From positions 24,284,167-24,348,166 of the forward strand of contig NC_069135.1 of assembly GCF_026914265.1 (NCBI RefSeq): 64,000 nucleotides of DNA, in the 5' to 3' direction. Both the position numbers and the translations under genes were made by a program. The DNA is from Mya arenaria. Lineage: Eukaryota; Mollusca; Bivalvia; Myida; Myidae. Positions within the stretch are counted from its first letter, which is position 1, and every line of letters starts with the position of its first letter. Under the pieces are notes generated by a model, which was not told the DNA's origin, made no database searches, and worked only from the letters and a program-made list of their open reading frames with translations. Shown piece by piece: positions 25,672-64,000 of the stretch.

Positions 25672-26834
25672 ATTGGGTAACTCGGCAGTGTAATGTACAT
25701 TAACGGTCTGGAGTAACAATGTATCATAATGCACATTAGGGGCCTTGGGTAATAAGGCATTATAATGTACATTAGGGGCCTGGGATAATAAGGCATGGGG
25801 ACCTGGGGTAATAAGGCATTATAATGTACCTAAGGGACCTGCAGTAACAATGTATCATAATGTATCTGAGGAGCCTGGGGTAATAAGGCATCATAATGTA
25901 CCTGAGGAGCCTGGGGTAATAAGGCATCATAATGTACCTGAGGAGCCTGGGGTAATAAGGCATCATAATGTACCTGAGGAGCCTGGGGTAATAAGGCATC
26001 ATAATGTACCTGAGGAGCCTGGGGTAATAAGGCATCATAATGTACCTGAGGAGCCTGGGGTAATAAGGCATCATAATGTATCTGAGGAGCCTGGGGTAAT
26101 AAGGCATCATAATGTACCCGAGGAGCCTGGGGTAATAAAGCATCATAATGTACCTTAGGGGCCTGGGGTAATAAGGCATCATAATGTATCTGAGGAGCCT
26201 GGGGTAATAAGGCATTATAATGTACCTGAGGAGCCTGGGGTAATAAGGCATCATAATGTATCTGAGGAGCCTGGGGTAATAAGGCATCATAATGTATCTG
26301 AGGAGCCTGGGGTAATAAGGCATCATAATGTACCTGAGGAGCCTGGGGTAATAAGGCATCATAATGTACCTGAGGAGCCTGGGGTAATAAGGCATCATAA
26401 TGTATCTGAGGAGCCTGGGGTAATAAGGCATCATAATGTATCTGAGGAGCCTGGGGTAATAAGGCATCATAATCTACATTAGGGGCCTGGGGTAACAAGG
26501 CATCATAATCTACATTAGGGATCTGGGGAAACAAGGCATCATAATCTACATAAGGGGTCTGGGGTAACAAGGCATCATAATCTATCGTAGGGGCCTGGGG
26601 TAACAAGGCATCATAATCTACATTAGGGAACTGGGGAAACAAGGCATCATAATCTACATTATGGGCCTGGGGTAACAAGGCATCATAATCTACCTTAGGG
26701 GCCTGGGGTAACAAGGCATCAAAATCTACATTAGGGGTCTGCGGTAACAAGGTATCATAATCTACCTCAGGGGCCTGGGGAAACAAGGCAGCATAATCTA
26801 CATTATGGGTCTGGGGTACAAGTCATCATAATGC
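25672..26834 (-). repeat. 36-bp intronic minisatellite, gene 1 array
   Basis: About 32 copies of a 36-bp unit (GGTAATAAGGCATCATAATG, then TACCTGAGGAGCCTGG) between the B-box exon and the C-terminal exon. Units at 26470-26830, nearest the B-box exon, are a distinct variant (CAAGGCATCATAATCTACAT). Frames reading PQAPQVHYDALL and MMPYYPRLLRYI are open in the sense direction. Confidence 0.93.
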
Positions 26835-27071
26835 TCCCTCAATTTTCTTTGGCAATTTTTAGTCCAAAATGGTGCATTTTGGGCGTATTTTATTACTTTT
26901 ATCATCCCGTATTGAAATAAAAAGTAAACTTGAACGATTTTGGACGGGCGCGTGGCGGGTGTCTCTTGCTCCCCCCCCCCTCTCCGCACGATCCGCTAGT
27001 GAACAAGGACAGTGTTTCCAATATAATTGATGCAACCGTTTACATACAACAAACGAAACCATTACATTTAC
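26835..27071 (-). other. Gene 1 intron, donor-proximal part with C10 tract
   Basis: Sequence conserved in all four genes: a CCAAAATGGTGCATTTTGGG block, then GAACGATTTTGGACGGGCGC, then a run of C (26972-26981; G in the transcript) about 90 bp downstream of the donor site. Confidence 0.7.
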
Positions 27072-27409
27072 CTGTGGTCAACTGCGATGCACACGTGGCA
27101 GCATAGTTGGTCATGGTCATCACAAACAAGTTCCAATGACTTGCCGGGATGTCTCTCGCATATCTCTACAGCATTTGAAATCGTCGTCGTTGAACCTGCC
27201 CAGTTGTCCAGGTCCTTGCGCCCAAAAACCGTGTGCCTGTTATATAATGTATTGTGAACCGGTGCACATTTGTTGCAGTAATATTTCGAACATTCTTTGC
27301 AAAAATGTTGAGCTTCCGTGTTAAGTCCGTTTTCTTCACATGGAGAACATGTAAAATCATGGATGAAATCACCACCTCTGTGAATAGATGATTCAAACTT
27401 TGAAGCCAT
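27072..27409 (-). pseudogene. TRIM-like gene 1, B-box exon
   Basis: Open for 113 residues from MASKFESS to VDHR, carrying all B-box 1 ligands and all but the last B-box 2 ligand. It is nearly identical to the gene 2 exon. The exon itself is intact; the gene is broken in the next exon. Confidence 0.85.
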
Positions 27410-28170
27410 TTTTATTTTGAAATTAAATTAATATTTTGTGAAAACGTAGATGTCCTTCGTGTTTCGACAACGCCTCCTATCAACAAGGAAGTAAATTGTA
27501 CCAAATATGTCATATGACTCAATCGATCCATAAAGAAATGGGAGGTAATACCATCATCTTAGATCGCTGGTGTTACACACATAATTTCATATTATTTGAC
27601 TTTTTCAGATAACTTAACAAAAATGAAGAGAAAAACAACAAGCTAAATTACGTATATATCTACAACAGTTGCAATACAAAGTATGTATTTGTGTGATGTG
27701 TATTATTATTATTACATTCCCTATTCTTGCTAGCCAAATTAAGTTCACATGTAAAAAATTAAGACAAATTTGATTTATTTAAGTTTGTTTGTGGCATATT
27801 CATATATTCTGCGTCTGGTTGAAATTCAATTAGGTTTATCCACGTTCATATATAAATAAAAAAAATATAATATTATCGTTTACAACATAATGGGCTCATT
27901 ATGTAATAATTAGATGACATGAATTAAATTCTTAATTATTACGAATGGGCGGAGTGAGCGTGGCGAACGAGCCCTTCTTTATCATTAAGGTATTACTTTA
28001 TTTCATCTAACTGACTAAGAATACAACCTCATTGGCTGATACATTGACAACGCAAAATCTGACGCAGGGAGTGTGTATCGGATGAGTGACAGCAGGCGGA
28101 CTGAAATTCTTTATAATTTAGCATAGTACTTAATAATTGCCTATCTGCAATTGCATTGGCTTGAAATGTA
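27410..28170. other. Upstream region of TRIM-like gene 1
   Basis: The first 130 bp (AACGTAGATGTCCTTCGTGT, then CAACAAGGAAGTAAATTGTA) are shared with genes 2 and 3 in part, and probably include 5' UTR or promoter. The remainder shows nothing recognisable. Confidence 0.5.
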
Positions 28171-28491
28171 ATGCACCTGTCATTTTAATCACGGCCCCCA
28201 GGTCCAGGGAATAGCGGGGACTTTGACTTTCGGTCCAGCCAACTCCGGCTAAAATCCCCGCCCTGCGGGACGAACAGAGGTAAAATCCCCGCCAAATGCC
28301 CCCGAACCCCAGGGACCCAAGGTAAGGCCCTTTCCCAGCTAAATTTAAAGCGAAGACAACACCACCGCTTTCAACCGGCACTGCGGGGCAACCTGAAAGG
28401 TAAAAACACGGCCCATTTCTCCGGCTTTCCCCAGTATACCTATACGCCCGGACCTGGGGGGGGGGGGCGTGGTTACAATTGACTGATGCAT
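28171..28491. mobile_element. MITE family A, 321-bp copy
   Basis: Left end 28171-28193 (ATGCACCTGTCATTTTAATC) and right end 28468-28491 (the complement matches ATGCATCAGTCAATTG). The interior matches the 3722-3955 copy but keeps about 85 bp missing there. It sits upstream of gene 1 and at the start of segment E. Confidence 0.8.
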
Positions 28492-30760
28492 AATTTGTAT
28501 TCTAAATGTTGATAGATTCATGTCAGTTTAGATACATTTCGACATTGGATAACGTATGGACTGTAAATTCTTAAAATGTCTCATGTGTTCAGATCGTATA
28601 CTTAGTAGGTACCATTTCTAACATCTTTAGAAAACGAGTATTTTAGCGAGTGTTTAACATGATCTGCACGGTTTCAAAACGTTTGTAAAAACAACTTTTA
28701 CGTATCCGAACCATGATGGATGCTGTGTTATGTCCGGCCACCAAATGTAGTTTTGTTGTGAATACAGGGGCTTTTGTTAGTTATATCTGGGAATAGGGAC
28801 AGTTTTCCAAAACAAAATCGGTATATTACCTTGATTTTGACCATGGAGTGTTGGTCAATAATCCATGACATGAATAATGCGCGCTTTCAAATTCAAATAC
28901 AAACTTAAGTATATACAAAAACGTGGTTCTCATGTAATTTTAGTCATTTAAAAAAACGTAACTTTTTTAGTTAAGTTTCTTAACATATATAAATGTTTTC
29001 AGTAAGTGATCGAATGTCTTAAACGCAATCTTCTTAAACTCTTCGTTTGAAGTTTTAACTGGTCTAAGTAAAAAGAAAAGTTTAAATCAAAAGCGAATCC
29101 AGGAAGGGGGGCGGACCCGGCGCCCGCCCTCCCAATATCCAAGTTCAATTTGATTTCAATAAAAGACAACATAGTAATAAAATAGGCCTATAATGCATCA
29201 TTTCGGACTAGAAGTTATTAAAAAGTTCATGGGGGGGGGGGGGTATCCCAAACCCACTGGCATGACTTTAAACCAAATAAATGTTTGTTAAAGAGGGAAC
29301 ATTTTTTTCTGTCATTATCTCAATCCAAAACTGGACATATTCATATTCAAAAGAAGGAAACTTCAGCTGTATGTAGCCGTTTTCTTTTAAGCTGATGTAA
29401 AGATTCATTTTTTTTATTACTTTAATATTATGATGGGGATAATACATACAAAAAGTATCTATATAGTTACATCTTTCAACATGTTTTAAAAATTGTTTTT
29501 ACTAATGCCGGTTCCGATTAAGTTCAATAACAAGTAAATTAATGCTTTATTTTACAAAGTTTTTCAGTATACTGTTTCGGTTTAAACATATATTCTTTGA
29601 TGAACAGGTACTAACCAAATGACAATATATATTTCAAAACAATTATTCGAGAGTTTGATCGGAAGATAAAATCATATAAAGATCATAGTTATTCTTTGGC
29701 AACAAACAGTAATGTTTAACAAACAGTAATGTTTAACAAACAGTAATGTTTGTTATCTGGTTGTCTTACAGAATTTCAAAGATGTGTTTGTTTCAAGATA
29801 AAATATTAATGGCCTTAAAGAGCTAAAGTATTATCATTATAATATTATGATGGAGAATACTATCTAATACAAACACATATACCATCTTTACAGATAACGG
29901 TCAAAAAGCGGAAGTTAAAATAACAACTCACTAACAACTGGGCGTCACATTCTCTTTGGGAAATCTTACCCTGGCAGATGAAGAGGTCCTAGAAAATGTT
30001 TAGCCTGCTCGAGTTGTTTCCATTTCCAATATGAATATTGAAACAGAAAATGTGATTCTCTAAAATACAGAAGGCGAAAACATAAACTTAAGCTATTCTT
30101 CAATAAAAAGAATCTCAATACACTTATTCCATCCCGAGTAGGGGATACAACCTAGTGCAATTTTCGAATTTTGTACACATTCGTAATATATTATGTAAAA
30201 AACAATTGTTATCGAATTCCTTCTTTTCATGTACACTATCATCGTGGAACGCTTCCAAAAATAGTTCCTCATTTATATCCCCCGCCGAAAGGTGAAGGTG
30301 ATATAGTAATGGTAGGCGCATGTGTGTGCATGTCCAGACAATCTTGTCCGGAGCATAACTTGAAGTATTGACTTCATACTTCATATACAGAAATATCAGG
30401 AGAAGTGCGGATTACACGAACCATATTTTTTTAATAATTGCCCTTAACTTGCATACTTATTTTTTTCCTGAGCATAAACAAGTAGTTAAGGTATTGACTT
30501 CAAATTTCATATACAGATAAGATATATCTCATTGCGAAAATGTGCAGTAAACACAAAAAATAACTCTGGGTGTAGTTATTGTTATTGCCATTTGTTAACT
30601 TTTATAAAAAAAATTCGGAGCACAACTTGAAAAGTATTTGAGGTATTGCCTTCAAACTTCATAATCAAATATCTCATTTCGGAAAAGTGCAGTGTATAGG
30701 AACTGTAAGTTGTTTTAGTAATTGCCCTTTGTTGATAATTAGCCTTTTTTAGTGATTGGT
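28459..30760. repeat. Segmental duplication E, copy 1
   Basis: Matches 54742-56790 almost throughout. Anchors are GGACTAGAAGTTATTAAAA at 29205 and 55663, TTCGGAAAAGTGCAGTGTAT at 30678 and 56706, and GGGCGTCACATTCTCTTTGG at 29940 and 56370. It carries no recognisable gene. A small 19-bp tandem triplication (AACAAACAGTAATGTTT) is at 29702-29752. Confidence 0.85.
30345..30760 (+). repeat. Dispersed 150-bp repeat, three diverged copies
   Basis: The same module as at 20535-20990: CCGGAGCATAACTTGAA, GTATTGACTTCA and GAGAAGTGC words repeat three times with decay. Confidence 0.6.
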
Positions 30761-34670: not shown

Positions 34671-34685
34671 GTTCATTGATATCCT

Positions 34686-35833: not shown

Positions 35834-37196
35834 TTACTCCAAAGAAATTTTCAGAAGTGAATTACTGTATCCTCCCACAATTAGACCGGACGTTCTGCTG
35901 CTGAATAACAAAGCCCGCGGTGATGTTAAATGTTCTTTCTTTACGTGCAATGTGGCCAACTTCCTCGTTCCGTTCTTGTCGATTTGCAGGATTAGATTAT
36001 CTGTCGAGACAAACACGTGTCCAGCTGTCGTCACGTGTATACTGGTAGGTTCTCTCATGTCAGGGTCAGTGAAAGTATTCAGCTTATTGCCACTTCTGTC
36101 AAGGCAAATGATTCGGGCGTTCTCACGATCGGTGATGTACACAACGTTGCCGTCTCCTCTGAACGAACATCTCTCAACGGTCAAACCACCCGATTCGTCC
36201 TCGTAGAACGTTTGCATCATCTGTCCAGATTTCATGTAGACGTACAGAGCGGTGCCCGAGCAGACGTAAAGCATATCCCCATGATAAGCTACATCACTAC
36301 AGGAGTGTGTGCAATTTATCCTTTTTGTTTTCACGATCTTTCCTTTCGTGATATTGATAAACTGCCACTCAAAGCCAATACAAACGACAGCGTCATTCCC
36401 TCCAATGTGACACACGCTAAATGGATTTTGGGGTACATCACAGTGGTCGACCACCTCGTACTTTTGATCCAGGAGTTTCACTTTAAGGTTGTTGAAGTCT
36501 AAAACGGCAATTTCTCCACCTGGTAGCTCACATATATCAACGATTAAACAAACTTTAATGTCAGTACTCAACGCAACGTTGTATTTTTTATATCCAGTTT
36601 CCTTAAAGACATGGTTTGGGTCGAGATGTTGGCTTGATGCTAATTTGGTCGCCATGGTTAATTCTTCAATTTCTCCAAAAGTACGTACCGACGACAGCAT
36701 TTCCTTCAGTACGTTATTAGCCCGAAATGATACAGCGTAAGTATCAAGTTCATACCTACGTGGAATGAGCCCATTCACTTCCCTTATTTTAGCTTTGCAT
36801 TTCCTGTATCCGATATATGATGAGGGTTCGTTATTTCTTCTATTTGAGGCCTCAATGAAGTTCACGAAATATTTTAATTCGTCATCCATTTGAGCAAAAT
36901 TTACTCCATCTTCTTTTATCCTATCTTCGAGCTTATCTACCAAGCAGTTCAATTCTTCAATGGTGGTCCTTTCTATGTCATCAAGGATTTCATTCATCTT
37001 CTTCCGAATAGCCTTAATTTCGTCTAGGATGGCTGCCCTAGTGGTTTTCAATGATGCTGTATTTCCCTTTCTTGCTTCTTCCATGTCATGAAGTTGTTTT
37101 CTAAGTTCTGAAACTTTGCCAGGCAGGCTTTTAAAGTCGGCGTCCTTGTAGATTCCCTTTGCAAGATATGGAATGTGCTGCACCTTGGAACATTTC
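35834..37196 (-). CDS. TRIM-like gene 2, coiled-coil/propeller exon
   Basis: Uninterrupted from the acceptor TTGCAG|GAAATG to the stop codon. It contains the KCSKVQHIP junction, a long charged heptad-rich helix and the whole propeller. Confidence 0.9.
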
Positions 37197-38946: not shown

Positions 38947-38992
<46 letters not shown>

Positions 38993-41900
38993 CACCACCA
39001 CCACCACCACCACCACCACCATCACTTGATTATTGAATACAGTAGGTTTATAAAAACAAAAACCACAGGTTAATTTTGAAAATATGCATTTTGTAAACAA
39101 ATAACGGGTATGTACATGTATTGTGGTATGTTAGAAATAGGTCACGTACCAAAACACATCATTTTTAAACAAAATTTTAATTCTAATATTTTTCTAAGAT
39201 AAAACAATCAATTTAAAGATTACATACTCATATCATTTCTTAAACATAAGTTATGTACATAAGTACATATAACAATATGTAACATGTACATAAGTACATG
39301 TAAAATATGAACATGCTGTCTAAACATGTAGCTAATAAAAATGACTTAAGAATCCCAAAGATAAATTAAAAAACAAACGTTTTTGAACACATCAACGTAC
39401 AAAACTGCTCAACGATACTTACATTTTGAGCCCTTTGATACGAATATCCCAGTTCCATGCCAATTGTTGACAGTTCGTTTTTTCGAGAGAAAATCTTCTC
39501 TTACGCGTATATTTCACTTATAATCCATGTTTTACTGTAATGACTCAAATCGTTAGATGTATCGTAATCAACTGTCAGCGTGTACTTTTAGTGTTAATTT
39601 ATTTTAAACGTATATTCATGAGAAAAACATCACAATGTTTCCAAATCCTACGATGTAGAAATTCCATTATTGACCGATGAATAGCCGGGAAATACCTTCT
39701 GTTTCTAAAAATAGCAACATCCGGTACAGGTCGAATACGCCCGTTGTTCGTCGCGATCTGTTATGGCGAGTGGCGATATATGTCGATGTTACCCGATGTT
39801 TCGCTTATTTCAATTAGCCAAAACACATACTAATAATGGATTTTGATAAAATGGAAAAATGGTTTCTTCTAATGAGCATACATTTTTTTCTTATATAATT
39901 TCTAAAAACTCTTAAAGAAGTAAAAATAACGAATATTATAGAACAACAATTATAGTGAGTTTAGCTTACACCTGTTATAAGGGACTTAAGAAGTTTCGAG
40001 AAATTGGGGCCGGTTTATAAAGGTATCCGGCCCCAATTTTTCGAAACTTCTTACTCGTAACTCACTATTTAAAGTATCTTGTTGAATTTAGCAATGATAC
40101 TTAGAAAACTATGATTTCATGAATTAACACGAAGTTTATCTTATGATTCTCAAATGATACTTACTTTAAAAGCCTCGGAACATAAATAAAAGAAGAACAC
40201 ACATTTTATACCAAATCAAAGATAGCATGCTGAGCTTGATCCTGTTATGAGGAATTTACGATGTTTCGAGCACTTGGATGTACAGTTATGTGGATTTTGA
40301 TGCCTGGAAACAGTCATAGTTTGTGTTATCATTTGGAAAGGTTATATGTTTAGAGAAAGAATATCTTCATAATATACCGAAAAGATTATTACAAACACGA
40401 TTGTTTGCCCTCGAAAGATTGAAAAATAGGCTATTTCGGATTTTAGTTGAAGAATTTTTATACAAAATGAAAATTGTACTTTCAAGCTGCACTCTCACAT
40501 TTTGACCTATTGAAAACTTTCTTATTTTTATATCTATGAATGAGCGAATTGCTGAGCAAATTTCTGGAAACCAGTGATATAAGACTGCTGACAAAAAATC
40601 AGATCACAGATTTTTATATTCACTAAACTGAAGGTATTGATGACAAAATCAACTGGCCCCAATTTCTCGAAACTTCTTAAGTCCCTTATAACAGGATTAA
40701 GCTAAACTCACTATATTTGCTGTTCTATAATATGCGTTATATTTACTTCTTTAAGAGTTTTTAGAAATTATGTAAGAAAAATCTGTACGCTTATTAGAAG
40801 AGACCGATTTTCATTAATCAAAATCCATTATTAGTATGTAATATGGCTAATTGAAATAAGCGACTTAAGCCTGTTTAGCTTAAGAAGTTTCGAAAAATTG
40901 GGGCCAGATTCTGAGACAAATATTTAAAAAAAACACGTAAAAACTGTCAACCAGTGAAAGTGGCGCTTTAAAATGTAATGTTTTTTCAATCCATCAGTTG
41001 CAATTTCGTAATCAGCAAGCAATACCATACCTTATTATTAGACCAAACATTTATTGGGTAATTAGGCAGTGTAATGTACCTTAACGGTCTGGAGTAACAA
41101 TGTATCATAATGCACCTTAGATTGAAAAATGTAGATGGCGATAGCGGATCACAGAAATGGGTAATAAGGCATTATAATGTACCTTAGGTGCCTGGGATAT
41201 AAAGGCATCATAAAGTACCTTAGGGGCCTGGGGTTAATAAGGCAACATAATGTACCTGAGGAGGCTGGGGTAATGAGGCATCATAATGTACCTGAGAAGC
41301 CTGTGGTAATAAGGCATCATAATGTACCTTAGGGGCCTGGGGTAATAAGGCATCATAATGTACCTTAGGGGCCTGGGGTAATAAGGCATCATAATGTACC
41401 TGAGGAGCCTGGGGTAATAAGGCATTATAATGTACCTTAGGGGCCTGGGATAATAAGGCATCATAATGTACCTGAGGAGCCTGGGGTAATAAGGCATTAT
41501 AATGTACCTTAGGGGCCTGGGATAATAAGGCATCATAATGTACCTGAGGAGCCTGGGGTAATAAGGCATCATAATGTACCTTAGGGGCCTGGGGTAATAA
41601 GGCATCATAATGTACCTTAGGGGCCTGGAGTAACAAGGCATCATAATGTACCTTAGGGGCCTGGGGAAATAAGGCATCATAATGTACCTTAGGGCCTGGG
41701 GTAATAAGGCAACATAATGTACCTGAGGAGCCTGGGGTAATAAGGCATCATAATGTACCTTAGGGGCCTGTGATAATAAGGCATCATAATCTACATTAGG
41801 GGTCTGGGGTACCAAGGCATCATAATCTATCTTAGGGGCCTGGGGTAACAAGGCATCAAAATATACATTAAGGGTCTGGGGTATCAAGGTATCATAATGT

Positions 41901-42635
41901 ACCTTAGGGGCCTGGGGAAACAAGGCATCAAAATCTACATTAGGGGTCTGGGGTAACAAGGTATCATAATCTACCTCAGGGGCCTGGGGTAACAAGGCAT
42001 CATAATTTACATTATGGGTCTGGGGTACAAGTCGTCATAATGCGCCCTCAATTTTCTTTAGCAATTTTTAGTCCAAAATGGTGCATTTCGGGCGTATTTT
42101 ATTACTTATATCATCCCGTATTGAAATAAAAAGTAAACTTGAACGATTTTGGACGGGCACGTGCCGGTTGTCTCCTGCTCCACTCCCCCCCCCCCTCCCC
42201 CCTCGCACGATCCGCTAGTGAACAAGGACAGTGTTTCCAGTATAATAACACATTGATGCAACCGTGTACATACAACGAACGAAACCATTATATTTACCTG
42301 TGGTCAACAGCGATGCACACGTGACAGCATAGTTGATCATGGTCATCACAAACTAGTTCCAATGACTTGCCGGGATGTCTCTCGCATATCTCTACAGCAT
42401 TTGAAATCGTCGTCGTTGAACCTGCCCAGTTGTCCAGGTCCTTGCGCCCAAAAACCGTGTGCCTGTTATATAATGTATTGTGAACCGGTGCACATTTGTT
42501 GCAGTAATATTTCGAACATTCTTTGCAAAAATGTTGAGCTTCCGTGTTAAGTCCGTTTTCTTCACACGGAGAACATGTAAAATCATGGATGAAATCACCA
42601 CCTCTGTGAATAGATGATTCAAACTTTGAAGCCAT
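35834..42635 (-). CDS. B-box/coiled-coil/NHL-like propeller protein (TRIM-like) gene 2, intact, 566 aa
   Basis: Exons 42635-42298 and 37196-35834 (338+1363 nt = 566 codons plus stop) join as ...GACCACAG|G AAA TGT. The start is the MASKFESS methionine conserved in genes 1-3; an upstream in-frame ATG at 42689 exists only here. Domains: B-box 1 at 21-59, B-box 2 at 84-120, coiled coil at about 140-235, and from about 300 a beta-propeller with NHL-like repeats (for example IHVTTAGHVFVST...ILQIDKNGTRKLATL). There is no RING, so ubiquitin-ligase activity is not expected from this protein alone. TRIM-like proteins often act in innate immunity or RNA control, and bivalves have many; the function here is inferred only from family. 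The 5.1-kb intron holds the 36-bp array and two gene 2-specific transposon insertions. Confidence 0.88.
37681..40011. mobile_element. 2.3-kb TIR element, family B long form, in the gene 2 intron
   Basis: It begins GGCCCCAATTTCTCGAAACT and ends with the inverse (...GTTTCGAGAAATTGGGGCC). Genes 1, 3 and 4 have an uninterrupted empty site here (CATCTTCGGTTTATTAAGG). The last 210 bp (39803-40011) and the first 40 bp match the whole 251-bp element at 40655-40905 in inverse orientation. The 251-bp form therefore looks like this one with about 2.08 kb (37722-39802) removed. The middle is AT-rich and holds microsatellites, with no transposase frame. Confidence 0.75.
38951..39022. repeat. Trinucleotide microsatellites (ATC)n then (CCA)n
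   Basis: About 14 ATC units followed by about 10 CCA units, inside the 2.3-kb TIR element. The open frames over them are artefacts. Confidence 0.95.
40028..40280. mobile_element. Old MITE family B copy in the gene 2 intron
   Basis: This is the copy at the same place as 24897-25147, 52380-52630 and 60121-60373 in the other genes. Left end CCCCAATTTTTCGAAACTTC, right end ACTTACGATGTTTCGAGCAC. Confidence 0.6.
40655..40905. mobile_element. MITE family B, 251 bp, gene 2 specific
   Basis: The terminal inverted repeats of about 27 bp are GGCCCCAATTTCTCGAAACT ... with one mismatch. Genes 1, 3 and 4 have the uninterrupted site (ATCAACTTATC(T/C)TGAGAC). No coding capacity. Confidence 0.85.
41045..42040 (-). 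repeat. 36-bp intronic minisatellite, gene 2 array
   Basis: About 27 units, interrupted at about 41120-41155 by unrelated bases. Units nearest the B-box exon (41790-42030) are the CATCAAAATCTACATTAGGG variants also found at that edge in genes 1 and 4. Confidence 0.92.
42170..42205. repeat. C-rich tract near the gene 2 donor site
   Basis: CCCCCCCCCCCTCCCCCC-type run about 100 bp downstream of the B-box exon in the direction of transcription; the transcript would carry G runs. Equivalent tracts are at 26972, 54272 and 63657. Confidence 0.8.
42298..42635 (-). CDS. TRIM-like gene 2, B-box exon
   Basis: 113 codons, all zinc ligands of B-box 1 and seven of eight of B-box 2. The last ligand (H120) is on the next exon. 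Donor CACAG|GTAAAT. Confidence 0.88.
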
Positions 42636-49600: not shown

Positions 49601-50600
49601 TGGAAGGGGATATCCGCCAGTTAATTCATGCTGCTTGATGACATTTCTCATTTTAAATTGCAATTGCATTCGTCTAAATGGCAGGTGCCTTCGTGCAATT
49701 GTTCGTGCCTTTTTGTTATTGACAAAAACATTTGTCTATGTATACAACTTTAAGATGCCTTCACTTTATTGCTTAGTGTTAACGTCTTAACGACAAATGA
49801 CAAGTTCTTACATTTAAATAACTAAATAACTAAATTGTGTACAAAACTACAATTTAACTATAAAGACTAAATAACTAATAGTATTTATATACTGTAATAA
49901 GACCATTGAAAGCTAAATAAATATTTATCAATAGCAGTATGCATTTGTCAATAAGCATATAGACGATAGACGAATGCATTTAGACGAACGCATCTAAACG
50001 AATGGAATTCAAAGGGAACCAGTAAATATTGGTATCCTGCGACAGCAATATTAAATGGGAATGGAAACCAAATGCTGGTACCCTTCTTATCCACGGGAGA
50101 GCACTCTCGACACTTTTGCTTCGGTGGCAGTCAACAGTTTTCGTGCAGGAGCTATCAAAAATATATTTATAAGAGGTCATGTATAACATTATCTGAACTT
50201 AAAAAATTAATACTGCTTGATGCTATTTTCTGCTGATTATTTTTTTTCCTGGATGTTTTTATTCGGTACTGAGTTAGACACATATCCAAATTCTAATCTG
50301 CGTTTCGGCCTAAATTTAAAATGTGTTGTCTACTAGGCGGTGACCAATTGTCGATGGATAACATGTTTTGAAATTTCTGAGGCCATCAAACAAAATCCAA
50401 GTATGAGCTTAGTGCTATCATTCGCAAGAAAATATGTACGCCTGGCTGTCATGTATAGAAATCTATGCATGTGTTTCATTCACTCAAATTTTCAATTTCT
50501 TTTCCTTCACTGGCTTCAGGACAGCCAAAGCATGTATACTAGAAATCTGTTATCAGCATCACTAGTGAATCCCGGGGGAGGGGATGGAGGTGCTGGAGGT
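49601..50600. mobile_element. Insertion of about 1 kb in the gene 3 terminal exon, with an internal TIR element
   Basis: It interrupts homology with the other three terminal exons. GGAAGGGGAT on the left and GGAGGGGATG on the right may be a target duplication. Inside, 49666-49680 (GCATTCGTCTAAATG) and 49977-49991 (inverse, one mismatch) bound a 326-bp MITE-like stretch. No coding frame was recognised. Confidence 0.55.
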
Positions 50601-53146
50601 AATGCTGAAGAACAAAGCCTTCGGTGACATTAACTTTTCTTTATATCCGTATGTGGCCAACTTCCTCTTTCCGTCCTTGTCGATTTGCAGGATTAAATTA
50701 GCGGTCGTGCTGCAGACAAACATGTGTCCAGCAGGCGTCACGCGTATCCCGGTAGGTTGTCTCATGTCAGGGTCAGTGAATGTATTCAGCTTATTGCCGC
50801 TGCTGTCAATGCAAATTATGCGGGTGTTCGTCCGATCAGTGATGTACATAACTTTGCCGTCCCCTCTGACGTAACATGTTCCAACGGTCGAACGACCTAA
50901 TTTGTCCTCGTACAGCTTTTTCACTAGCTGTGCAGATTTCGTGTAGACGTACAGAGCATTGCACGAGCAGACGTAAAGCATATCCCCATGAGAAGCTACA
51001 TCACTACATGAGTGTGTACAGTTTTTCATTTTTGTTTTCAATAACTTTCCTTTCGTTATATTGATAAACTGCAACCCAACGTCAATACAAACGACAACTT
51101 CATTCCCTCCAGTGTGGCACACGCCTAATGGTTTATTGGGTACATCACAGTGGTCGACCACCTTGTACTCTTGATCCAGGAGTTTCACGTTAAGGTTGCT
51201 GTAGTCTAAAATGACAATTTCTCCACCTGGTATTTCACATATACTCCAGATTAAACAATCTTTAGTGTCAGTACTCAACGTGACGTTGTATTATTTATAT
51301 CCAGTTTCCTTAAAGACATGGTTTGGGTCGAGATGTTCGCTTGATGCTAATTTGGTCGCCATAGTTAATTCTTCAATTTCACCGAAAGTACGTACCGAAG
51401 ACAGCACTTCCTCCAGTACGTTATTAGCCCGAAATGATACAGCATATACATCAATTTCATAGATACATGGAATGAGTTCATTCACTCCCTTATTTTATTT
51501 TGGCACTTCCTGAATCCGATATATGATGAGGGTGCGTTATTTCTTTTATTTGATGCCTCAATGAAGTTCACGAAATCTTTTAATTCGTCATCCATTTGAG
51601 CACAATTTACTCCATCTTCTTTGATCCTATATTCGATGTTATCTACCAAGCAGTTCAATTCTTCAATGGTGATCCTTTCTATTTCATCAAGGATTTCATT
51701 CATCTTTTTCCGAATAGCCCTTATTTCATCTAGGATGACTGTCCTTGTGGTTTTCAATGATGCTGTATTTTTATTTCGTGCTTCTTCCATGTCATGAATT
51801 TGTTTTCTAAGTTCTGAAACTTTACCAGGCAGGCTGTCGGTGTCCTTGTGATTCCCGTTGCAAGATCTAGAATGTGCTGCACCTTGGAACATTTCCTGCA
51901 ATAAACAATGTTCATGTGTATTGCTAATTAAGAACTATGTAATAAACATGGCTATATCTTTCTTCCTTTCGACTTTAAATTTATAATTACGTTTGAACAG
52001 CTGACAATAAGAATAAATATTCATACAATATCATTGCATCGTTTTCAACCGTATGCTCTGTTTTGTTAGACCGGGGGATGTGTCAAATGTCCAAGGCTTC
52101 CAAAAATCATTTGATGATAAACCAACCGGCCACGTCAGTTTTTCGTCTTTAATATCCCGCCTGTCGCGAATCACCTACTGTCTAATGATATCCCCTATAT
52201 GCCCCGCCCAACATCCCAATGGTACAAAACAATGATTGAGTCATGTATATACACATTTCGCAGGTAATTTATAAATTAACAGCAAAGCACTATAAACAAT
52301 TACAATACCTTTGAAAAAACAACGTCGGCTGACTATTTATTAAATGACGTTTCACATCTTCGGTTTATTAAGGTATCCAGCCCCAATTTCTCGAAAATTC
52401 TTAACCGTAACTTACAACTTAAGTATCTTACTGCATTCAGCAATATTACTCATATAAATATGATTTTATGAAACACCACGAAGTTTATCCTATTTATCTA
52501 AAATATTATCTACTTTAAAGAGTCAACAACCTTTAAAATCGTGATATAACACAATTTATACCAAATCAAAAATAGCATTCTGGGCTTGATCCTGTTATGA
52601 GGGACTTAAGATGTTTCGAGACATTGGATGAACAGTTATGTGGATTTTGATGCCTGGTGACAACCATATTTTGTGTTATTACTTGGAAAGGTTATATGTT
52701 TAGAGAAAGAATATCTTCACAATATACCGAACAGATAATTACAAATACGATTGTTTGCCCTCGAACCATTGAAAAATAGGCTATTTGGGATTTTAGTTGA
52801 AGATTTTTTAATATAAAATGAAAATTTTACTTTAAAGCTCATTGCACTCTCAAATTTTGACCGTTTTGAAAACCTTCATATATTTTTTGATTAGGAATGA
52901 GCGTATGGTTAGGAAATCTCTTGAAACCAATGATATAAGACTGCTGAGAAAAGATTATATCACCGATTTTCATATTGACTCAATTAAGGCATTGAATCAA
53001 CTTATCCTGAGACAAATATTAAAAAAACAATGTAAAAACTGTCAATCAGTGAGAGTGCCGCTTTTAAATGCAATGTATTTTTAATCCTTAGTTGCATTTT
53101 CGTTATCAACAAGCAATACCATATCCAATTACTATACTTAACATTT

Positions 53147-54130
53147 ATTGGTAAACAAGACAGCGTAATGTACCTAAACGGTCTGTTGTAACAATGTTTC
53201 ATAATGTACCTTAGGGGCCTGGGGTAATAAGGGGTCATAACGCACATTAGAGGCCTGGGGTAACGAGGCACCATAATTTACCTAAGGGGCCTGGGGTAAC
53301 AAGGCATTATAATGTACCTTAGGGGTCTGGGATAACAAGGCATCATATTTTACTTTAGGGGCCTGGGGTAACAAGGCATCCTATATTACCTTAGGGGCCT
53401 GGGGTAACAAGGCATCATAGTGTACCTTAGGGGCCTGGGGTAACAAGGCATCATATTGTACCTTAGGGGCCTGGGGTAACAAGGAATTATTATGTACCTT
53501 AGGGGCCTGGGGTAACAAGGCATTATAATGTATCTTAGGGGCCTGGGGTAACAAGGTATTATAATGTACCTAAGGGGCCTGGGGTAACAAGGCATTATAA
53601 TGTACCTTAGGGACCTGGGGTATCAATGCATCATAATGTACCTTAGGGGCCTGGGGTAACAAGGCATTATAATGTACCTTAGGGGCCTGGGGTAACAATG
53701 CACCATAATGTAGCTTAGGGCCCGTGGTAACGAGGCATCATAATATGCCTTAGGGGCCTGGGGTAACAAGGCATTATAATGTACCTTAGGGGCCTGGGGT
53801 AACAACGCATTACAATGTACCTTAGGGGCCTGGGGTAACAAGGCATTATAATGTACCTTAGGGGCCTGGGGTAACAAGGCATCATATTGTACCTTAGGGA
53901 CCTGGGATAACAAGGCATTATAATGTACCTTAGGGGCCTGGGGTAACAAGGCAATATAATGTCCCCTGAGGGACCTGGGGTAACCAGGCGTCATAATGTA
54001 CCTTAGTGCCCGGGGGTAACGAGGCATTATAATGTCCCCTGAGGTAACAAGTTATCATAGTGTACCTTAGGGGCCTGGTGTAACAAGGCATCATAATATA
54101 CCTTAGGGGTCTGGGATATAAAGTCATAAA
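53147..54130 (-). repeat. 36-bp intronic minisatellite, gene 3 array
   Basis: About 27 units, mostly GGTAACAAGGCATTATAATG and then TACCTTAGGGGCCTGG. Indels at 53690-53760 and 53950-54060 break the 36-bp register. It is less homogeneous than the gene 4 array. Confidence 0.9.
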
Positions 54131-54741
54131 TATGCTCCTTCAATTTTCTTTAGCAATTTCTGGTCCTAAATGGTGCATTTTGGGCGTATTTAAATACTTT
54201 TATTCTCCCGTTTTAAAATAAAATGTAAACTTGAACGATTTTGGACGGGCGCGTGCCGAGTGTCTCCTGCTCCCCCCCCCCCCCGCACGATCGGCTAGTA
54301 AACAAGGATATTGTTTCGAGTATAATAACAAATGCAACCGTGTACATACAACGAACGAAACCATTACATTTACCTGTGGTCAACTGCGATGCACACGTGA
54401 CAGCATAGTTGATCATGGTCATCACAAACAAGTTCCAATGACTTGCCGGGATGTCTCTCGCATATCTCTACAGCATTTGAAATCGTCGTCATTGAAGCTG
54501 CCCAGTTGTCCAGGTCCTTGCGTCCAAAAAGCGTGTGCATGTTATATAATGCACAAAAAATGTTGAGTTTCCGTGTTAAGTCCGTTTTCCTCACATGGAG
54601 AACATGTACAATCATAGATGAAATCACCACCTCTGTGAATAGATGATTCAAACTTTGAAGCCATGTTTTGTTTTAAATTAATATTTTGTGAAAACGTAGA
54701 TGTCCTTCGTGTTCCGACAACGCCTTCTGTCAACAAGGAAG

Positions 54742-57075: not shown

Positions 57076-57437
57076 GCGCTTTGTTCATTGATATCCTTTG
57101 TCGAATGGCGTAATTTCTGTACTCAATTCGGCAGGGGATATGGCTGTCTGTGACTGCTCTTGTTACTATGAGAGTGGATGTGATTTAAGTGTCGCTCATG
57201 TAAGTCTGCGGAAGAACTATAGTAATCTTAATGAACATTTGTTCTCTTAAATATTGTCAATAACGCCAATTCCCAATGTTGAGAAATTGAAGACACCTAT
57301 CATATCGCCAGGTGGCGTGTATAAACACGAATGATTCGTGCGCATTACCGTGAAAAACCCACAAAGGCGATATCTTATAAAATGAAATGCATTTTGTAAA
57401 AATAAAGATGAAACATAAAAATAATACATGTATGCAA

Positions 57438-57516
57438 TAAATCCACCGGCAGCAGGATTCGATTCCGGCTACTCTACATCTGCTTCGTACACCTTCACCA
57501 CTGCGCCATTGTAGTC
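57438..57516 (-). mobile_element. tRNA-derived SINE head, 3' of gene 4
   Basis: The paralogue of 35026-35104, nearly identical. Confidence 0.6.
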
Positions 57517-58279
57517 AGAAAATGTTTTATGTTTTTTGTATAAAACATATATACATAGTTCATAAAAGTGGAGGAATTTATCCGCTGTGAGAAATGTTGC
57601 CATATTTTAAACCATACTTAAAGTTTATGTTTTTTACTGAAAATTGACATAGTTGTTGCACCACAACGATAAAGACTATCGATCGATTGTGAAATCAAAT
57701 GCAATTAAATATGTTAATATACATATATATATATTCGTATACACGTACGAGTTATTATGTGTATGGAACGCAGTGGATACATTGAAACTATTATAGCATG
57801 AACCATGTGAATCAGGTTAGGTTTTTAAAGATACCAAGCTAACAATTTCAACAGTTCTAATATTTACAATCACGTATTAAAAGTAATAAATTATTACTAA
57901 AACACATTATTTCGTTATCATGATAAGAAATATAGTATAAAGGCAAAATAACATATATCCGGCATGTGCTGCAGAAAACATAGTCTGTACAGCATACAAT
58001 CACGATAACGCAATAGTTAAATGATTGCCGCCATAAAAATACGCTAACAAGACATGGAGAATAAAATGTGGATAAAGTGTTTCTATTAACTCATTATAAG
58101 AGAAATAAAACAAAGTATATAAACCCTAGATAACATAATTTCGAATTTATATTGTTTACTATGTACAGTTTGTGTAAGTTTATTAACTAACACTTGTCCA
58201 GCTTTACAGGACTAAGAAACCTTAAGGCGTTCATACGTTATATACATCCCTGCACAATGTCGTACCCCAAAATGTTCAC

Positions 58280-59663
58280 TCAATACTGACTTTTTTGCAA
58301 AGAAATTTTCAGAAGTGAATTACTGTATCCTCCCACAATTAGACCGGACGTTCTGCTGCTGAATAACAAAGCCCGCGGTGATGTTAAATTTTCTTTCTTT
58401 ACGTGCAATGTGGCCAACTTCCTATTTCCGTCCTTGTCGATTTGCAGGATTAGATTATCTGTCTGGCTGCAGACAAACACGTGTCCAGCAGGCGTCACGT
58501 GTATTCCGGTAGGTGAACTCATGGCAGGGTCAGTGAAAGTATTCAGCTTATTGCCACTTCTGTCAAGGCAAATGATTCGGGCGTTCTCACGATCGGTGAT
58601 GTACACAACGTTGCCGTCTCCTCTGAACGAACATCTCTCAACGGTCAAACGACCCGTACAGCTTTTGTCCTCGTACAGCTTTTTCACCAACAGTGCAGAC
58701 GTGTAGACGTACAGAGCGGTGCCCGAGCAGACGTAAAGCACGTCCCCATGATAAGCTACAGCAGTACAGAAGTGTGTGCAATTTATCCTTTTTGTTTTCA
58801 CGATCTTTCCTTTCGTGATATTGATAAACTGCAACGCACCGCCAGTACAAATGACAACGTCATTCCTTCCAATGTGACACACGCCAAATGGATTATCGGG
58901 TACATCACAGTGGTCGACCACCTTGTACGCCTGGTCTAGGAGTTTCACTTTAAGGTTGTTGTAGTCTGAACAAACAATTTCTCCACCTGGTAGCTCACAT
59001 ATACCCCAGATAAAACAATCTTTAGTGTCAGTACTCAACGCCACGTTGAATTCTTTATATCCAGTTTCCTTAAAGACATGGTTTGGGTCGAGATGTTGGC
59101 TTGATGCTAATTTGGTCGTCATGGTTAATTCTTCAATTTCTCCGAAAGAACTAACCGACGACAGAATTTCCTCCAGTACGTTATTAGCCCGAAATGATAC
59201 AGCGTATGTATCAATTTCATAACTACGTGGAATGAGCCCATTCACTTCCCTTATTTTATTTTGGCACTTCCTGAATCCGATATATGATGAGGGTTCGTTA
59301 TTTCTTCTATTTGAGGCCTCAATGAAGTTCAAGAAATCCATTAATTCGTCATCCATTCGAGCACAATTTACTCCATTTTCTTTTATCCTATCTTCGAGCT
59401 TATCTACCAAGCAGTTCAATTCTTCAATGGTGATCCGTTCTATTTCATCTAGGATTTCATTCATCTTTTTCCGAATAGCCCTAATTTCAACTAGGATGGC
59501 CGTCCTTGTGGTTTTCAATGATGCTGTATTTCTCTTTCTTGCTTCTTCCATGTCATGAAGTTGTTTTCTAAGTTCTGAAACTTTGCCAGGCAGGCTTTTA
59601 AAGTCGGCGTCCATGTAGATTCCCTTTGCAAGATCTGGAATGTGCTGCACCTTGGAACATTTC
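58280..59663 (-). CDS. TRIM-like gene 4, coiled-coil/propeller exon
   Basis: Open from the acceptor TTGCAG|GAAATG to TGA. HVTPAGHVFVCSQTDNLI and LQIDKDGNRKLATL show the NHL-like repeat. Confidence 0.9.
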
Positions 59664-62600
59664 CTGCAATAAACATGTACATGTACATGTGCATTGCTAA
59701 TTATGAACTATTTAATAAACATGGCTATATCTTTCTTCCTTTCGACTTTAAATGTATAATTACGTTTGAACAGCTGACATTAAGAATACATATTCATACA
59801 ATATCATTGCATCGTTTTCAACCGTATGCTCTGTTTTGTTACACCGAGGGATGTGTCAAATGTCCAAGGCTTTCAAAAATCATTTGATAATAAACCAACC
59901 GGCCACGTCAGTTTTCCGTCTTTTAATATCCCGCCTGTCGCGAAACGCCCACTGTCTAATGATATCCCCTATATGCCCCGCCCAACATCCCAATGGTACA
60001 AAACGCAGGTAATTTCTATATTAACAGCAAAGCGCTATAAACAATTACAATACCTTTGAAAAAACAACTTCGGCTGACTATTTATTAAATGACGTTTCAC
60101 ATCTTCGGTTTATTAAGGTATCCAACCCCAATTTCTCGAAAATTCTTAACCGTAACTTACAACTTAAGTATCTTACTGTAATCAGCAATATTAGTCATGT
60201 AAATATGATTTTATGAAACAAAACGAAATTTATCCTATTTATCTCAAATATTATCTACTTTAAAGAGTCAACAATCTTTAAAATCGTAATATAACACAAT
60301 TTATACCAAATCAAAAATAGCATGCTGAGCTTGATCCTGTTATGAGGGACTTACGATGTTTCGAGAAATTGGATGAACAATTATTTGGATTTTGATGCCT
60401 GGTGACAGCCATATTATGTGTTATTATTTGAAAAGGTTATATGTTTAGAGAAAGAATATCTTCATAATATACCGAAACGATTATTACCTACACGATTGTT
60501 TGGCCTCGAAAGATTGAAAAATAGGCTATTTCGGATTTTAGTTGAAGATTATTTATCTAACATGAACATTTTACTTTAAAGCTGCACTCTCACATTTTGA
60601 CCGTTTTGAAAAATTTCTTATGGTAATAAGGCATCATAATGTACCTTAGGAGCTTGGGGTAATAAGACATTATAATGTACCTTAGGAGCTTGGGATAATA
60701 AGGCATTATAATGTACCTTAGGAGCTTGGGGTAATAAGGCATCATAATGTACCTTAGGAGCTTGGGGTAATAAGGCATCATAATGTACCTTAGGAGCTTG
60801 GGGTAATAAGGCATCATAATGTACCTTAGGAGCTTAGGGCAATAAGGCATTATAATGTACCTTAGGAGCTTGGGGTAATAAGGCATCATAATGTACCTTG
60901 GGGCCTGGGGTAATAAGGCATTATAATGTACCTTAGGAGCTTGTGGTAATAAGGCATTACAATGTACCTTAGGAGCTTGGTGTAATAAGGCATTATAATG
61001 TACCTTAGGAGCTTGGGGTAATAAGGCATTATAATTTACCTTAGGAGCTTGGGGTAATAAGGCATCATAATTTACCTTAGGAGCCTGGGGTAATAAGGCA
61101 TCATAATGTACCTTAGGAGCTTGGGGTAATAAGGCATTATAATGTACCTTAGGGGCCTGGGGTAATAAGGCATCATAATGTACCTTAGGAGCTTGGGGTA
61201 ATAAGGCATTATAATGTACCTTAGGGGCCTGGGGTAATAAGGCATCATAATGTACCTTAGGAGCTTGGGGCAATAAGGCATTATAATGTACCTTAGGAGC
61301 TTGGGGTAATAAGGCATTATAATTTACCTTAGGAGCTTGGGGTAATAAGGCATTATAATGTACCTTAGGAGCCTGGGGTAATAAGGCATTATAATGTACA
61401 TTAGGGGCCTGGGGTAATAAGGCATCATAATTTACCTTAGGAGCTTGGGGTAATAAGGCATTATAGTGTACCTTAGGAGCTTGGGGTAATAAGGCATTAT
61501 AGTGTACCTTAGGAGCTTGGGGTAATAAGGCATTATAATGTACCTTATGGGCCTGGGGTAATAAGGCATCATAATGTACCTTAGGAGCTTGGGGTAATAA
61601 GGCATTATAATGTACCTTAGGAGCCTGGGGTAATAAGGCATTATTATGTACATTAGGGGCCTGGGGTAATAAGGCATCATAATTTACCTTAGGAGCTTGG
61701 GGTAATAAGGCATTATGGTGTACCTTAGGAGCTTGGGGTAATAAGGCATTATAGTGTACCTTAGGAGCTTGGGATAATGAGGCTTCATAATGTACCTTAG
61801 GAGCCTGGGGTAATAAGGCATTATAATGTACCTTAGGAGCCTGGGGTAATAAGGCATTATAATGTACCTTAGGAGCTTGGGGTAATAAGGCATTATAGTG
61901 TACCTTAGGAGCTTGGGGTAATAAGGCATTATAGTGTACCTTAGGAGCTTGGGGTAATAAGGCATTATAATGTACCTTAGGAGCTTGGGGTAATAAGGCA
62001 TTATAGTGTACCTTAGGAGCCTGGGGTAATAAGGCATCATAATGTACCTTAGGGGCCTGGGGTAATAAGGCATCATAATGTACCTTAGGAGCTTGGGGTA
62101 ATAAGGCATTATAATGTACCTTAGGAGCTTGGGGTAATAAGGCATCATAATTTACCTTAGGAGCTTGGGCCAATAAGGCATTATAATGTACCTTAGAAGC
62201 TTGGGGTAATAAGGCATTATAATGTACCTTAGGAGCCTGGGGTAATAAGGCATCATAATGTACCTTAGGGGCTTGGGGTAATAAGGCATTATAATGTACC
62301 TTAGGGGCCTGGGGTAATAAGGCATCATAATGTACCTTAGGAGCTTGGGGTAATAAGGCATCATAATGTACATTAGGAGCTTGGGGTAATAAGGCATTAT
62401 AATGTACCTTAGGGGCCTGGGGTAATAAGGCATCATAATGTACCTTAGGAGCTTGGGGTAATAAGGCATCATAATGTACATTAGGAGCTTGGGGTAATAA
62501 GGCATCATAATGTACCTTAGGGGCTTGGGGTAATAAGGCATTATAATGTACTTTAGGAGCTTGGGGTAATAAGGCATTATAATGTACCTTAGGAGCTTGG

Positions 62601-64000
62601 GGTAATAAGGCATCATAATGTACTTTAGGGGCTTGGGGTAATAAGGCGTCATAATGTACCTTAGGAGCTTGGGGTAATAAGGCGTCATAATGTACCTTAG
62701 GAGCTTGGGGTAATAAGGCATTATAATGTACCTTAGGAGCTTGGGGTAATAAGGCATCATAATGTACCTTAGGAGCTTGGGGTAATAAGGCATCATAATG
62801 TACCTTAGGAGCTTGGGGCAATAAGGCATCATAATGTACCTTAGGGGCCTGGGGTAATAAGGCATCATAATGTACCTAAAGGGTCTGGGGAAATAAGGCA
62901 TTATAATGTACCTTAGGGGCCTGGGGTAATAAGGCATTATAATGTACCTTAGGGGCCTGGGGTAATAAGGCATCATAATGTACCTAAAGGGTCTGGGGTA
63001 ATAAGGCATTATAATGTAACTTATGGGCCTGGGGTAATAAGGCATCATAATGTACCTTAGGGGCCTGGGGTAATAAGGCATCATAATGTACCTTAGGGGC
63101 CTGGGGTAATAAGGCATCATAATGTACCTTAGGGGCTTGGGGTAATAAGGCATTATAATGTACCTTAGGGGCCTGGGGTAATAAGGCATCATAATGTACC
63201 TTAGGAGCTTGGGGTAATAAGGCATCATAATGTACCTTATGGGCCTGGGGTGATAAGACATCATAATGTACCTTAGGAGCTTGGGGTAACAAGGCACCAT
63301 AATCTACATTAGGGGTCTGGGGTAACAAGGCATCATAATCTACCTTATGGGCCAGGGGTATCAAGGCATCATTATCTACCTTAGGGGTCTGGGGTAACAA
63401 GGCATCAAAATCTACATTAGGGGTCTGGGGTAACAAGGTTTCATAATCTACCACAGGGGCCTGGGGTAACAAGTCATCATAATCTATATTATGGGTCTGG
63501 GGTACAAGTCATCATAATGCTCCCTCAATTTTCTTTGGCAAGTTTTAGTCCAAAATAGTGCATTTTGGGCGTATTTTATTACTTTTATCATCCCGTATTG
63601 AAATAAAAAGTAAACTTGAACGATTTTGGACGGGCGCGTGCCGGGTGTCTCCTGCTCCCCCCCCCCACACCGCGTGCCGGGTGTCTCCTGCTCCCCCCCT
63701 CCTCCGCACGATCTGCTAGTGAACAAGGACAGTGTTTCCAGTATGATAACAAATTGATGCAACCGTGTACATACAATGAACGAAACCTTTACATTTACCT
63801 GTGGTCAACAGCGATGCACACGTGACAGCAAAGTTGATCATGGTCATCACAAACTAGTTCCAATGACTTGCCGGGATGTCTCTCGCATATCTCTACAGCA
63901 TTTGTAATCGTCGTCGTTGAACCTGCCCAGTTGTCCAGGTCCTTGCGCCCAAAAACCGTGTGCCTGTTGTATAATGTATTGTGAACCGGTGCACATTTGT
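58280..64000 (-). CDS. B-box/coiled-coil/NHL-like propeller protein (TRIM-like) gene 4, 5' end outside the window
   Basis: The C-terminal exon 59663-58280 is open and joins in phase to the B-box exon, of which 63799-64000 is visible (from ...KCAPVHNT to VDHR). If the missing 136 nt match the siblings, the protein has 573 residues. B-box 2 ligands are all present (CERH, CDDH, CCHVC, DHR|KCSKVQH). Coiled coil and propeller are as in gene 2, with a small SCTGR insertion in one blade. The C-terminus runs past the usual ISL(Q/E) stop to ISLQKSQY because the stop codon has changed. The intron holds the largest 36-bp array of the window. Confidence 0.85.
59664..60618 (-). other. Gene 4 intron, array-distal part
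   Basis: Homologous to 24412-25400 and 51896-52860. It includes the old MITE family B copy at 60121-60373. About 200-300 bp present next to the array in genes 1-3 are absent; homology ends at GAAAAATTTCTTAT and the array starts at once. Confidence 0.65.
60619..63520 (-). repeat. 36-bp intronic minisatellite, gene 4 array (about 80 units)
   Basis: Highly homogeneous units GGTAATAAGGCATCATAATG, then TACCTTAGGAGCTTGG. The GGAGCTTGG type dominates at 60630-62800, and GGGGCCTGG is commoner at 62820-63260. At 63290-63515 are the CTACATTAGGGGTCTGGGGT variants shared with the other arrays. Sense frames of 743 codons (complement of 60590-62821) and 382 codons (complement of 62152-63300) result from the stop-free unit. 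Confidence 0.95.
63655..63705. repeat. Duplicated C-tract segment near the gene 4 donor site
   Basis: GCGTGCCGGGTGTCTCCTGC plus a C run occurs twice in tandem (about 63636-63664 and 63671-63698). The siblings have it once. Confidence 0.85.
63799..64000 (-). CDS. TRIM-like gene 4, B-box exon (partial)
   Basis: Visible residues start within B-box 1 (NKCAPVHNTLYNRH) and end at VDHR with donor CACAG|GTAAAT. No lesion was seen. Confidence 0.85.

What the first reader, a model, noticed from the sequence alone, without database searches (positions are those of the whole stretch)
25672..63520. The same 36-bp minisatellite occupies one intron of all four TRIM-like genes
Arrays at 25672-26834, 41045-42040, 53147-54130 and 60619-63520 all lie between the B-box exon and the C-terminal exon. 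They have survived several rounds of gene duplication and pseudogenisation, and vary from about 27 to 80 units. A neutral array may simply have been carried along, but the conserved place, unit length and variant edge suggest it may affect transcription, splicing or gene conversion among the copies.
Basis: partly seen in the sequence, partly recalled or inferred. Interest (0 to 1): 0.7.

Follow-up and report, generated by a model that had tools for sequence, protein, structure and literature searches.

The report
Intron minisatellite inherited through gene duplications
A block of 36-letter repeats in one intron was copied along when a gene (probably a clam's) was duplicated, giving five neighbouring gene copies that each carry their own changing version; nothing found so far shows that it does anything, so it is a fairly ordinary case.

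Summary
Four arrays of one 36-bp unit (33, 28, 28 and 81 units, partial edge units included) lie in the intron between the B-box exon and the NHL-propeller exon of four minus-strand paralogues. A fifth gene with a 70-unit array lies just right of the window. Two genome-wide DNA searches, with the copy 1 and the copy 5 array, each gave only these five arrays in 1.22 Gb (the first look is not exhaustive). The B-box family is huge (1,469 candidates, 150 scored). None of 26 sampled relatives shows the unit within 1.5 kb, and the five carriers form one clade. The two units next to exon 2 carry the same odd variants in copies 1, 2, 3 and 5, so the array most likely predates the duplications. Edges stayed, interiors turned over, as slippage and unequal exchange predict. 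Tests for a role did not support one: no coding constraint, splice-like sites not kept, and divergence that rises towards the array, against array-centred conversion. Most likely a neutral passenger. Allele lengths, transcription and the order of duplications remain open.

The parts
23076..24411 (-). copy 1, exon 2 (coiled-coil-like stretch + NHL), in-frame stop at 24033-24035
   Evidence: ORFs; acceptor; Pfam NHL 32.3 bits
25675..26833 (-). copy 1, 36-bp array, 33 units, in intron 24412-27071
27072..27409 (-). copy 1, exon 1 (B-box)
   Evidence: Pfam zf-B_box 34.1 bits; donor
35834..37196 (-). copy 2, exon 2, open
41056..42042 (-). copy 2, 36-bp array, 28 units, interrupted near 41119-41158, in intron 37197-42297
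42298..42635 (-). copy 2, exon 1 (B-box), open
50560..51895 (-). copy 3, exon 2, broken frames (lower end approximate)
53154..54140 (-). copy 3, 36-bp array, 28 units, in intron 51896-54373
54374..54664 (-). copy 3, exon 1, about 47 bp shorter than the others, frame broken
58280..59663 (-). copy 4, exon 2, open
60622..63519 (-). copy 4, 36-bp array, 81 units, in intron 59664-63798; about 277 bp of exon-2-side flank and the array edge are missing
63799..64000 (-). copy 4, exon 1, cut by the window end (continues to 64136 in the contig)
26834..27000 (-). 5' part of a dispersed (MITE-like, my reading) repeat that abuts the array in copies 1-4; 2,257 first-look candidates genome-wide, 40 scored

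Best explanation
One minisatellite arose in the intron after the B-box exon of the ancestor of a five-gene tandem cluster. It was copied with the gene at each duplication, including a block duplication of about 26 kb that carried two genes (shown: shared terminal units and flanks, block matches; inferred: the events and their order, which the data do not settle). After each duplication the interior of each array turned over by slippage and unequal exchange, so that interiors differ and lengths run from about 1.0 to 2.9 kb, while units near the ends escape turnover and keep older variants (pattern shown, mechanism inferred). It is a passenger: it is removed with the intron (inferred from the splice sites; no transcripts seen), and no effect on the gene is needed to explain its place, unit length or edge.
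For: The same 5 of 5 first-look candidates in the 1.22-Gb genome with the copy 1 array and with the copy 5 array. The five carriers form one clade, support 1.000, in an exon 1 tree with 26 relatives. The last two units on the exon-2 side carry the same rare variants in copies 1, 2, 3 and 5; copy 4 lacks that edge. The first 7 units on the exon-1 side match in register among copies 1, 2 and 4 (permutation P 0.0004-0.0028). Interiors: mean unit distance within arrays 0.031-0.120, between arrays 0.079-0.161, copies 1-4. No stop depletion or synonymous excess in the open gene-strand frame, 154 of 170 units. Unrelated minisatellites of 45, 38, 64, 97 and 42 bp lie in the same window, so arrays are common here.
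Against: The array is kept in 5 of 5 copies, three of them with broken frames. The exon-1-side edge of copy 3 matches less well (P 0.017-0.097), and a permutation of the last 4 units on the exon-2 side is weak (P 0.042-0.080 among copies 1-3, which is near the smallest possible; 0.84-1.0 with copy 4). Copies 1 and 2 differ between each other (0.079) no more than copy 2 does within itself (0.085), so interiors are not cleanly private. The TTATTA unit variant is common in copies 1, 2 and 4 but not in 3 or in the copy 5 consensus, which does not follow the block pairs 1-3 and 2-4 and needs a loss or an exchange. The exon 1 tree pairs copies 4 and 5 (0.935), against copy 5 as the outsider that the shared junction of copies 1-4 suggests. 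A different 32-bp minisatellite lies downstream of exon 1 in 10 of 26 other members, so this intron may favour arrays for a reason.
Confidence: 0.85

Rival explanations
1. The arrays promote gene conversion or unequal crossing-over among the copies.
For: The genes are mosaic: copy 2 differs from copies 1 and 4 by 20% over about 500 bp of intron next to exon 2 (98/485 and 95/458), while four-fold sites differ by 7/129 and 6/150 and its exon 1 region is 97.8% and 96.4% identical to theirs. Interior variants are shared across copies 1, 2 and 4.
Against: Divergence rises towards the array: 0.00-0.07 per 100 bp in the 600 bp next to exon 2 (six pairs of copies 1, 3, 4, 5), 0.07-0.16 in the last 260 bp (the three pairs with data). 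Copies 1 and 4 differ about as much in that intron (17/487) as at four-fold sites (4/126). The odd stretch of copy 2 does not touch the array.
Confidence: 0.07
2. The array regulates transcription or splicing of the gene (length-dependent intron element, decoy splice sites).
For: Similar place 233-279 bp after the donor in copies 1-4; many units hold a donor-like AAG|GTA.
Against: AAG|GTA is present in only 2 of 33, 13 of 28, 17 of 28, 67 of 81 and 25 of 70 units. Consensus frequency per column runs 0.50-0.99, mean 0.90, with no block that stands out to me; not formally tested. Relatives L018, L019 and L026 have introns of only about 380-410 bp and no array there.
Confidence: 0.05
3. The array is coding: the 36-bp unit is 12 codons and reads QAPKVHYDALLP without stops for up to 761 aa on the gene strand.
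For: Long open frames of 330 and 761 aa.
Against: On 72 distinct changes: stops 5 observed, 4.6 expected; synonymous 15 observed, 17.9 expected. Frame-breaking indels in copies 2 and 3 and one in copy 4. By my reading of the sequence, exon 1 (phase 2) cannot be spliced into that frame at the CAG sites of the units. One of the 42 frame tests had a nominal P of 0.037 for synonymous excess (copy 4, an antisense frame).
Confidence: 0.01
4. The array moves as, or with, a transposable element.
For: In copies 1-4 it abuts a dispersed repeat with 2,257 first-look candidates.
Against: 0 of 26 inspected dispersed copies (about 1.5 kb each side) have unit-like DNA. In copy 5 the DNA before the array matches the 3' part of the same repeat (16 of 26 inspected copies match), followed by other intron DNA. 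No array outside the cluster in two searches.
Confidence: 0.02

Closest known systems
Ordinary intronic minisatellite (VNTR) carried through tandem gene duplication
   Same: Head-to-tail units of 10-100 bp, homogenised interior, spared edges, length differs between copies, position shared by descent.
   Different: Nothing essential; here five paralogues of one cluster show edges and interiors side by side. Allele variation not tested.
[quoted passage not shown] PMC3087553, passages seen)
   Same: Minisatellite-like repeats at an intron of a gene-family member; concerted evolution inside, boundaries excluded; AG/GT signals in many but not all units.
   Different: Mirage units contain the exon/intron boundary; here the unit shows no similarity to either boundary of copy 1 (P 0.60 for both).
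KIR intron 1 minisatellite shared by paralogous immune receptor genes (recalled; no paper seen; one search listed 10 of 26 papers, none evidently on it)
   Same: From memory, the same kind: one intron minisatellite shared by a tandem family of fast-evolving receptor genes.
   Different: Different gene family, unit and animal; comparison from memory only.

Membership tests
Minisatellite | Tandem units of about 10-100 bp with high identity | tested here: met
   36 bp, 28-81 units; 81-92% matches in the window arrays
Minisatellite | Length varies between alleles | not testable with these tools
   One assembly only; paralogous arrays differ from about 1.0 to 2.9 kb
Amphioxus-type mirage | Unit contains the exon/intron boundary sequence | tested here: not met
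   Smith-Waterman score 7 at the donor and at the acceptor of copy 1; shuffled-unit means 7.1 and 7.0; P 0.600 and 0.598
Coding repeat | Purifying selection on a reading frame | tested here: not met
   No stop depletion, no synonymous excess in the open gene-strand frame
Repeat tied to a mobile element | Dispersed copies of the unit | tested here: not met
   5 of 5 candidates, all in the cluster, in two searches; the first look is not exhaustive and the exact-pattern scan did not complete
TRIM protein | B-box | tested here: met
   PF00643 34.1 bits versus cut-off 24.1 for copies 1 and 2
TRIM protein | RING domain | tested here: not met
   No RING match at E 0.1 in exon 1 of copies 1 and 2 (113 aa) or in exon 2 pieces of copies 1, 2 and 4; further upstream exons not excluded; copies 3 and 5 not scanned
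TRIM protein | Coiled coil | tested here: inconclusive
   TRIM_CC 13.6-18.4 bits, below its cut-off of 30
TRIM protein, NHL class | NHL repeats | tested here: met
   PF01436 22.1, 26.0 and 32.3 bits versus cut-off 20 for copies 2, 4 and 1

The most novel reading that the evidence does not exclude
The intron after the B-box exon is a repeated birthplace of long minisatellites in this very large gene family (36-bp arrays in this cluster, a different 32-bp array downstream of exon 1 in 10 of 26 sampled relatives, a 59-bp array in one more, L039, which the exon 1 tree places next to the cluster). Such arrays would help neighbouring copies misalign and exchange, and so speed the birth and loss of recognition-type genes.
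Probability: 0.1. Interest if true: 0.5.

Novelty: new member of a known kind. Interest (0 to 1): 0.22.

Why it matters
Modestly. Five copies of one array, with recognisable edges and changing interiors, make a natural series for measuring minisatellite turnover against flanking divergence. The array also serves as a marker for this cluster. If arrays in this intron turn out to drive exchange among family members, that would bear on how bivalve recognition-type gene families expand.

Tried and rejected
Coding repeat: long open frames suggested it; rejected by the stop and synonymous tests (16 of 170 units with gaps, insertions or partial ends were left out). Mirage origin: rejected. Splice decoys: AAG|GTA not kept. 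G-run pairs on the + strand as a structural motif: CCCCAGGCCCC (sense) occurs only 5, 8, 16, 15 and 7 times in arrays of 33, 28, 28, 81 and 70 units. Topology switch across the array: suggested by BLAST identities; informative sites on exon 1 and the short intron flank were too few to decide, and the divergence gradient spoke against array-centred conversion. Recent homogenisation of the intron: suggested by dS of 0.08-0.13 in exon 2 but not borne out at four-fold sites for copies 1 and 4. Origin in the adjacent dispersed repeat: rejected. An empty site without the array: not found; among the 40 scored of 2,573 candidates the 82 bp nearest the array matched only cluster copies, and a diverged empty site could have been missed. 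Unit in viral contigs (one exact 23-mer) and prokaryote genome contigs (one degenerate 23-mer): 0 matches. Paper searches; none of the listed rows is evidently on this array. Seen as passages: PMC9210306, PMC3087553, PMC10663159; all others as listings only.

Full report
What is there. Four arrays of one 36-bp unit are real and in the stated places. All four genes read on the minus strand. Exon 1 encodes a B-box (PF00643, 34.1 bits for copies 1 and 2) and exon 2 a coiled-coil-like stretch plus NHL repeats (copies 1, 2 and 4). No RING was found in the pieces scanned, so 'TRIM-like' is fair and 'TRIM' is not shown. Donor and acceptor sites are present in all four copies and put the arrays inside the intron, 233-279 bp after the donor. 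Copies 2 and 4 have open exons (exon 1 of copy 4 is completed outside the window); copy 1 has an in-frame stop in exon 2 and copy 3 is broken in both exons.

The genome. The window lies in an assembly of 1,216,080,610 bases in 18 contigs. [quoted passage not shown] the species is my inference and was not tested (an early note of mine, said Dreissena-like, from memory). A search with the copy 1 array gave 5 first-look candidates, all scored: the four window arrays and a fifth at C14:24357867-24360395. A search with that fifth array, the one with the lowest TRF match percentage, gave the same five. The tool warns that its first look is not exhaustive, and my exact-pattern scan did not complete.

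The family. Exon 1 has 1,469 candidates in the genome. The 150 scored (four of the five cluster copies among them) match at E 2.7e-35 or better; 143 of the 150 are on contig C14. I examined the next 26 with 1.5 kb on each side: 0 of 26 have the unit. A tree of exon 1 puts copies 1-5 in one clade with support 1.000. L018 and L019, the best-scoring relatives, have introns of about 380 bp with no array, and L026 one of about 410 bp. So the array looks like a derived feature of one small tandem cluster, not of the gene family.

History. The two units nearest exon 2 carry the same unusual changes in copies 1, 2, 3 and 5, while copy 4 has lost that edge; a permutation test on the last 4 units is weak (P 0.042-0.080 among copies 1-3; 0.84-1.0 with copy 4; copy 5 not included). 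The exon-1-side edge matches in register among copies 1, 2 and 4 (P 0.0004-0.0028) and less well with copy 3 (P 0.017-0.097). The exon-1-side flank in copies 1-4 is the 5' part of a dispersed repeat cut off by the array. Copy 5 keeps DNA like the 3' part of that repeat (16 of 26 inspected copies match it), with other intron DNA before the array. The simplest reading is that the array was in the ancestor of all five, and that a deletion joined the repeat to the array in an ancestor of copies 1-4. Against that order, the exon 1 tree pairs copies 4 and 5 (support 0.935); I leave the order open. A block of about 26 kb with two genes was duplicated: pieces of 17351-30739 match pieces of 43636-56782, and 34367-37713 matches 56785-60156 (in which hits under 150 bp or inside arrays were dropped).

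Turnover. Interiors differ between copies. Mean unit distance is 0.031 (copy 1), 0.085 (2), 0.120 (3) and 0.077 (4) within arrays, and 0.079-0.161 between them; copies 1 and 2 overlap (0.079 between, 0.085 within copy 2). Few exact units are shared (1-2: one kind, 1-4: two, 2-4: two, 1-3, 2-3 and 3-4: none). The TTATTA variant dominates the interiors of copies 1, 2 and 4, while copy 3 and the consensus of copy 5 have TTGTTA. That does not follow the block pairs and needs a loss or an exchange.

Function tests. Coding: the unit is 12 codons and one gene-strand frame is open for long stretches, but among 72 distinct changes in 154 units there are 5 stops against 4.6 expected and 15 synonymous against 17.9 expected. 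Splicing: AAG|GTA is present in 2 of 33, 13 of 28, 17 of 28, 67 of 81 and 25 of 70 units. Boundary origin: no similarity to the boundaries of copy 1. Constraint: consensus frequency per column runs 0.50-0.99, mean 0.90, over 240 units, with no block that stands out to me (no formal test).

Gene conversion. In the intron between exon 2 and the array, copies 1, 3, 4 and 5 are about 96% identical over the first 500 bp and 91-93% over the array side. Per 100 bp the mismatch is 0.00-0.07 in the 600 bp next to exon 2 and 0.07-0.16 in the last 260 bp next to the array. Copy 2 is the outlier, with 20% difference in the first stretch against 4-5% at four-fold sites. Copies 1 and 4 differ there about as much as at four-fold sites (17/487 and 4/126), so recent homogenisation is not shown. 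The genes are mosaic, but the array is not at the centre of it.

Closest known. It works like any intronic minisatellite. Amphioxus mirages are the nearest described gene-family case of which I saw passages: they share concerted interiors and spared boundaries, but not the defining boundary-containing unit. The KIR intron 1 minisatellite is recalled only.

Verdict. Real, found only in a five-gene cluster, inherited by descent, changing inside. A passenger is the best reading (0.85; the facts mended on re-checking, such as the unsettled order of duplications, do not bear on it). Interest is low to moderate.

Noticed in passing
genome, mostly contig C14: A very large B-box exon family: 1,469 first-look candidates, 150 scored, all of these at E 2.7e-35 or better, 143 of them on C14.
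   Followed up: partly
L021-L024, L027, L032, L034, L038, L041, L042 (downstream of exon 1): A different 32-bp minisatellite in 10 of 26 sampled relatives, in 7 of the 10 about 1.2 kb after the donor, so presumably in the same intron (exon 2 of these ten was not located; several of the ten are near-identical copies). L039 has a 59-bp array there. Not searched genome-wide.
   Followed up: partly
23076-24411, 35834-37196, 58280-59663 versus exon 1 of copies 1, 2 and 4: The C-terminal two thirds of exon 2 have dN/dS (NG86) of 0.97-1.20 while exon 1 has 0.00-0.16: relaxed or diversifying change in the likely recognition part.
   Followed up: partly
37197-37713: The intron of copy 2 next to exon 2 differs by 20% from copies 1 and 4 although its exons are 90-98% identical to theirs.
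   Followed up: partly
25349-25492 in copy 1 and genome-wide: Part of the exon-2-side intron flank is a dispersed repeat, often in inverted pairs.
   Followed up: no
54928-55096: A 42-bp array of 4 units in the second block; most of it has no counterpart at the matching place of the first block.
   Followed up: no
166-1029, 7174-8018, 14177-14450, 32278-33164: Other unrelated minisatellites of 45, 38, 64 and 97 bp.
   Followed up: no
window coordinates 86146-87009 (L011, outside the window): A sixth exon-2-like fragment (62% aa identity) with no exon 1 match to the end of the stretch read.
   Followed up: no
window coordinates about 72480 (L010, outside the window): Copy 5 has TTGCAAG where copies 1-4 have the acceptor TTGCAGG, besides a TAA in exon 1.
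   Followed up: no
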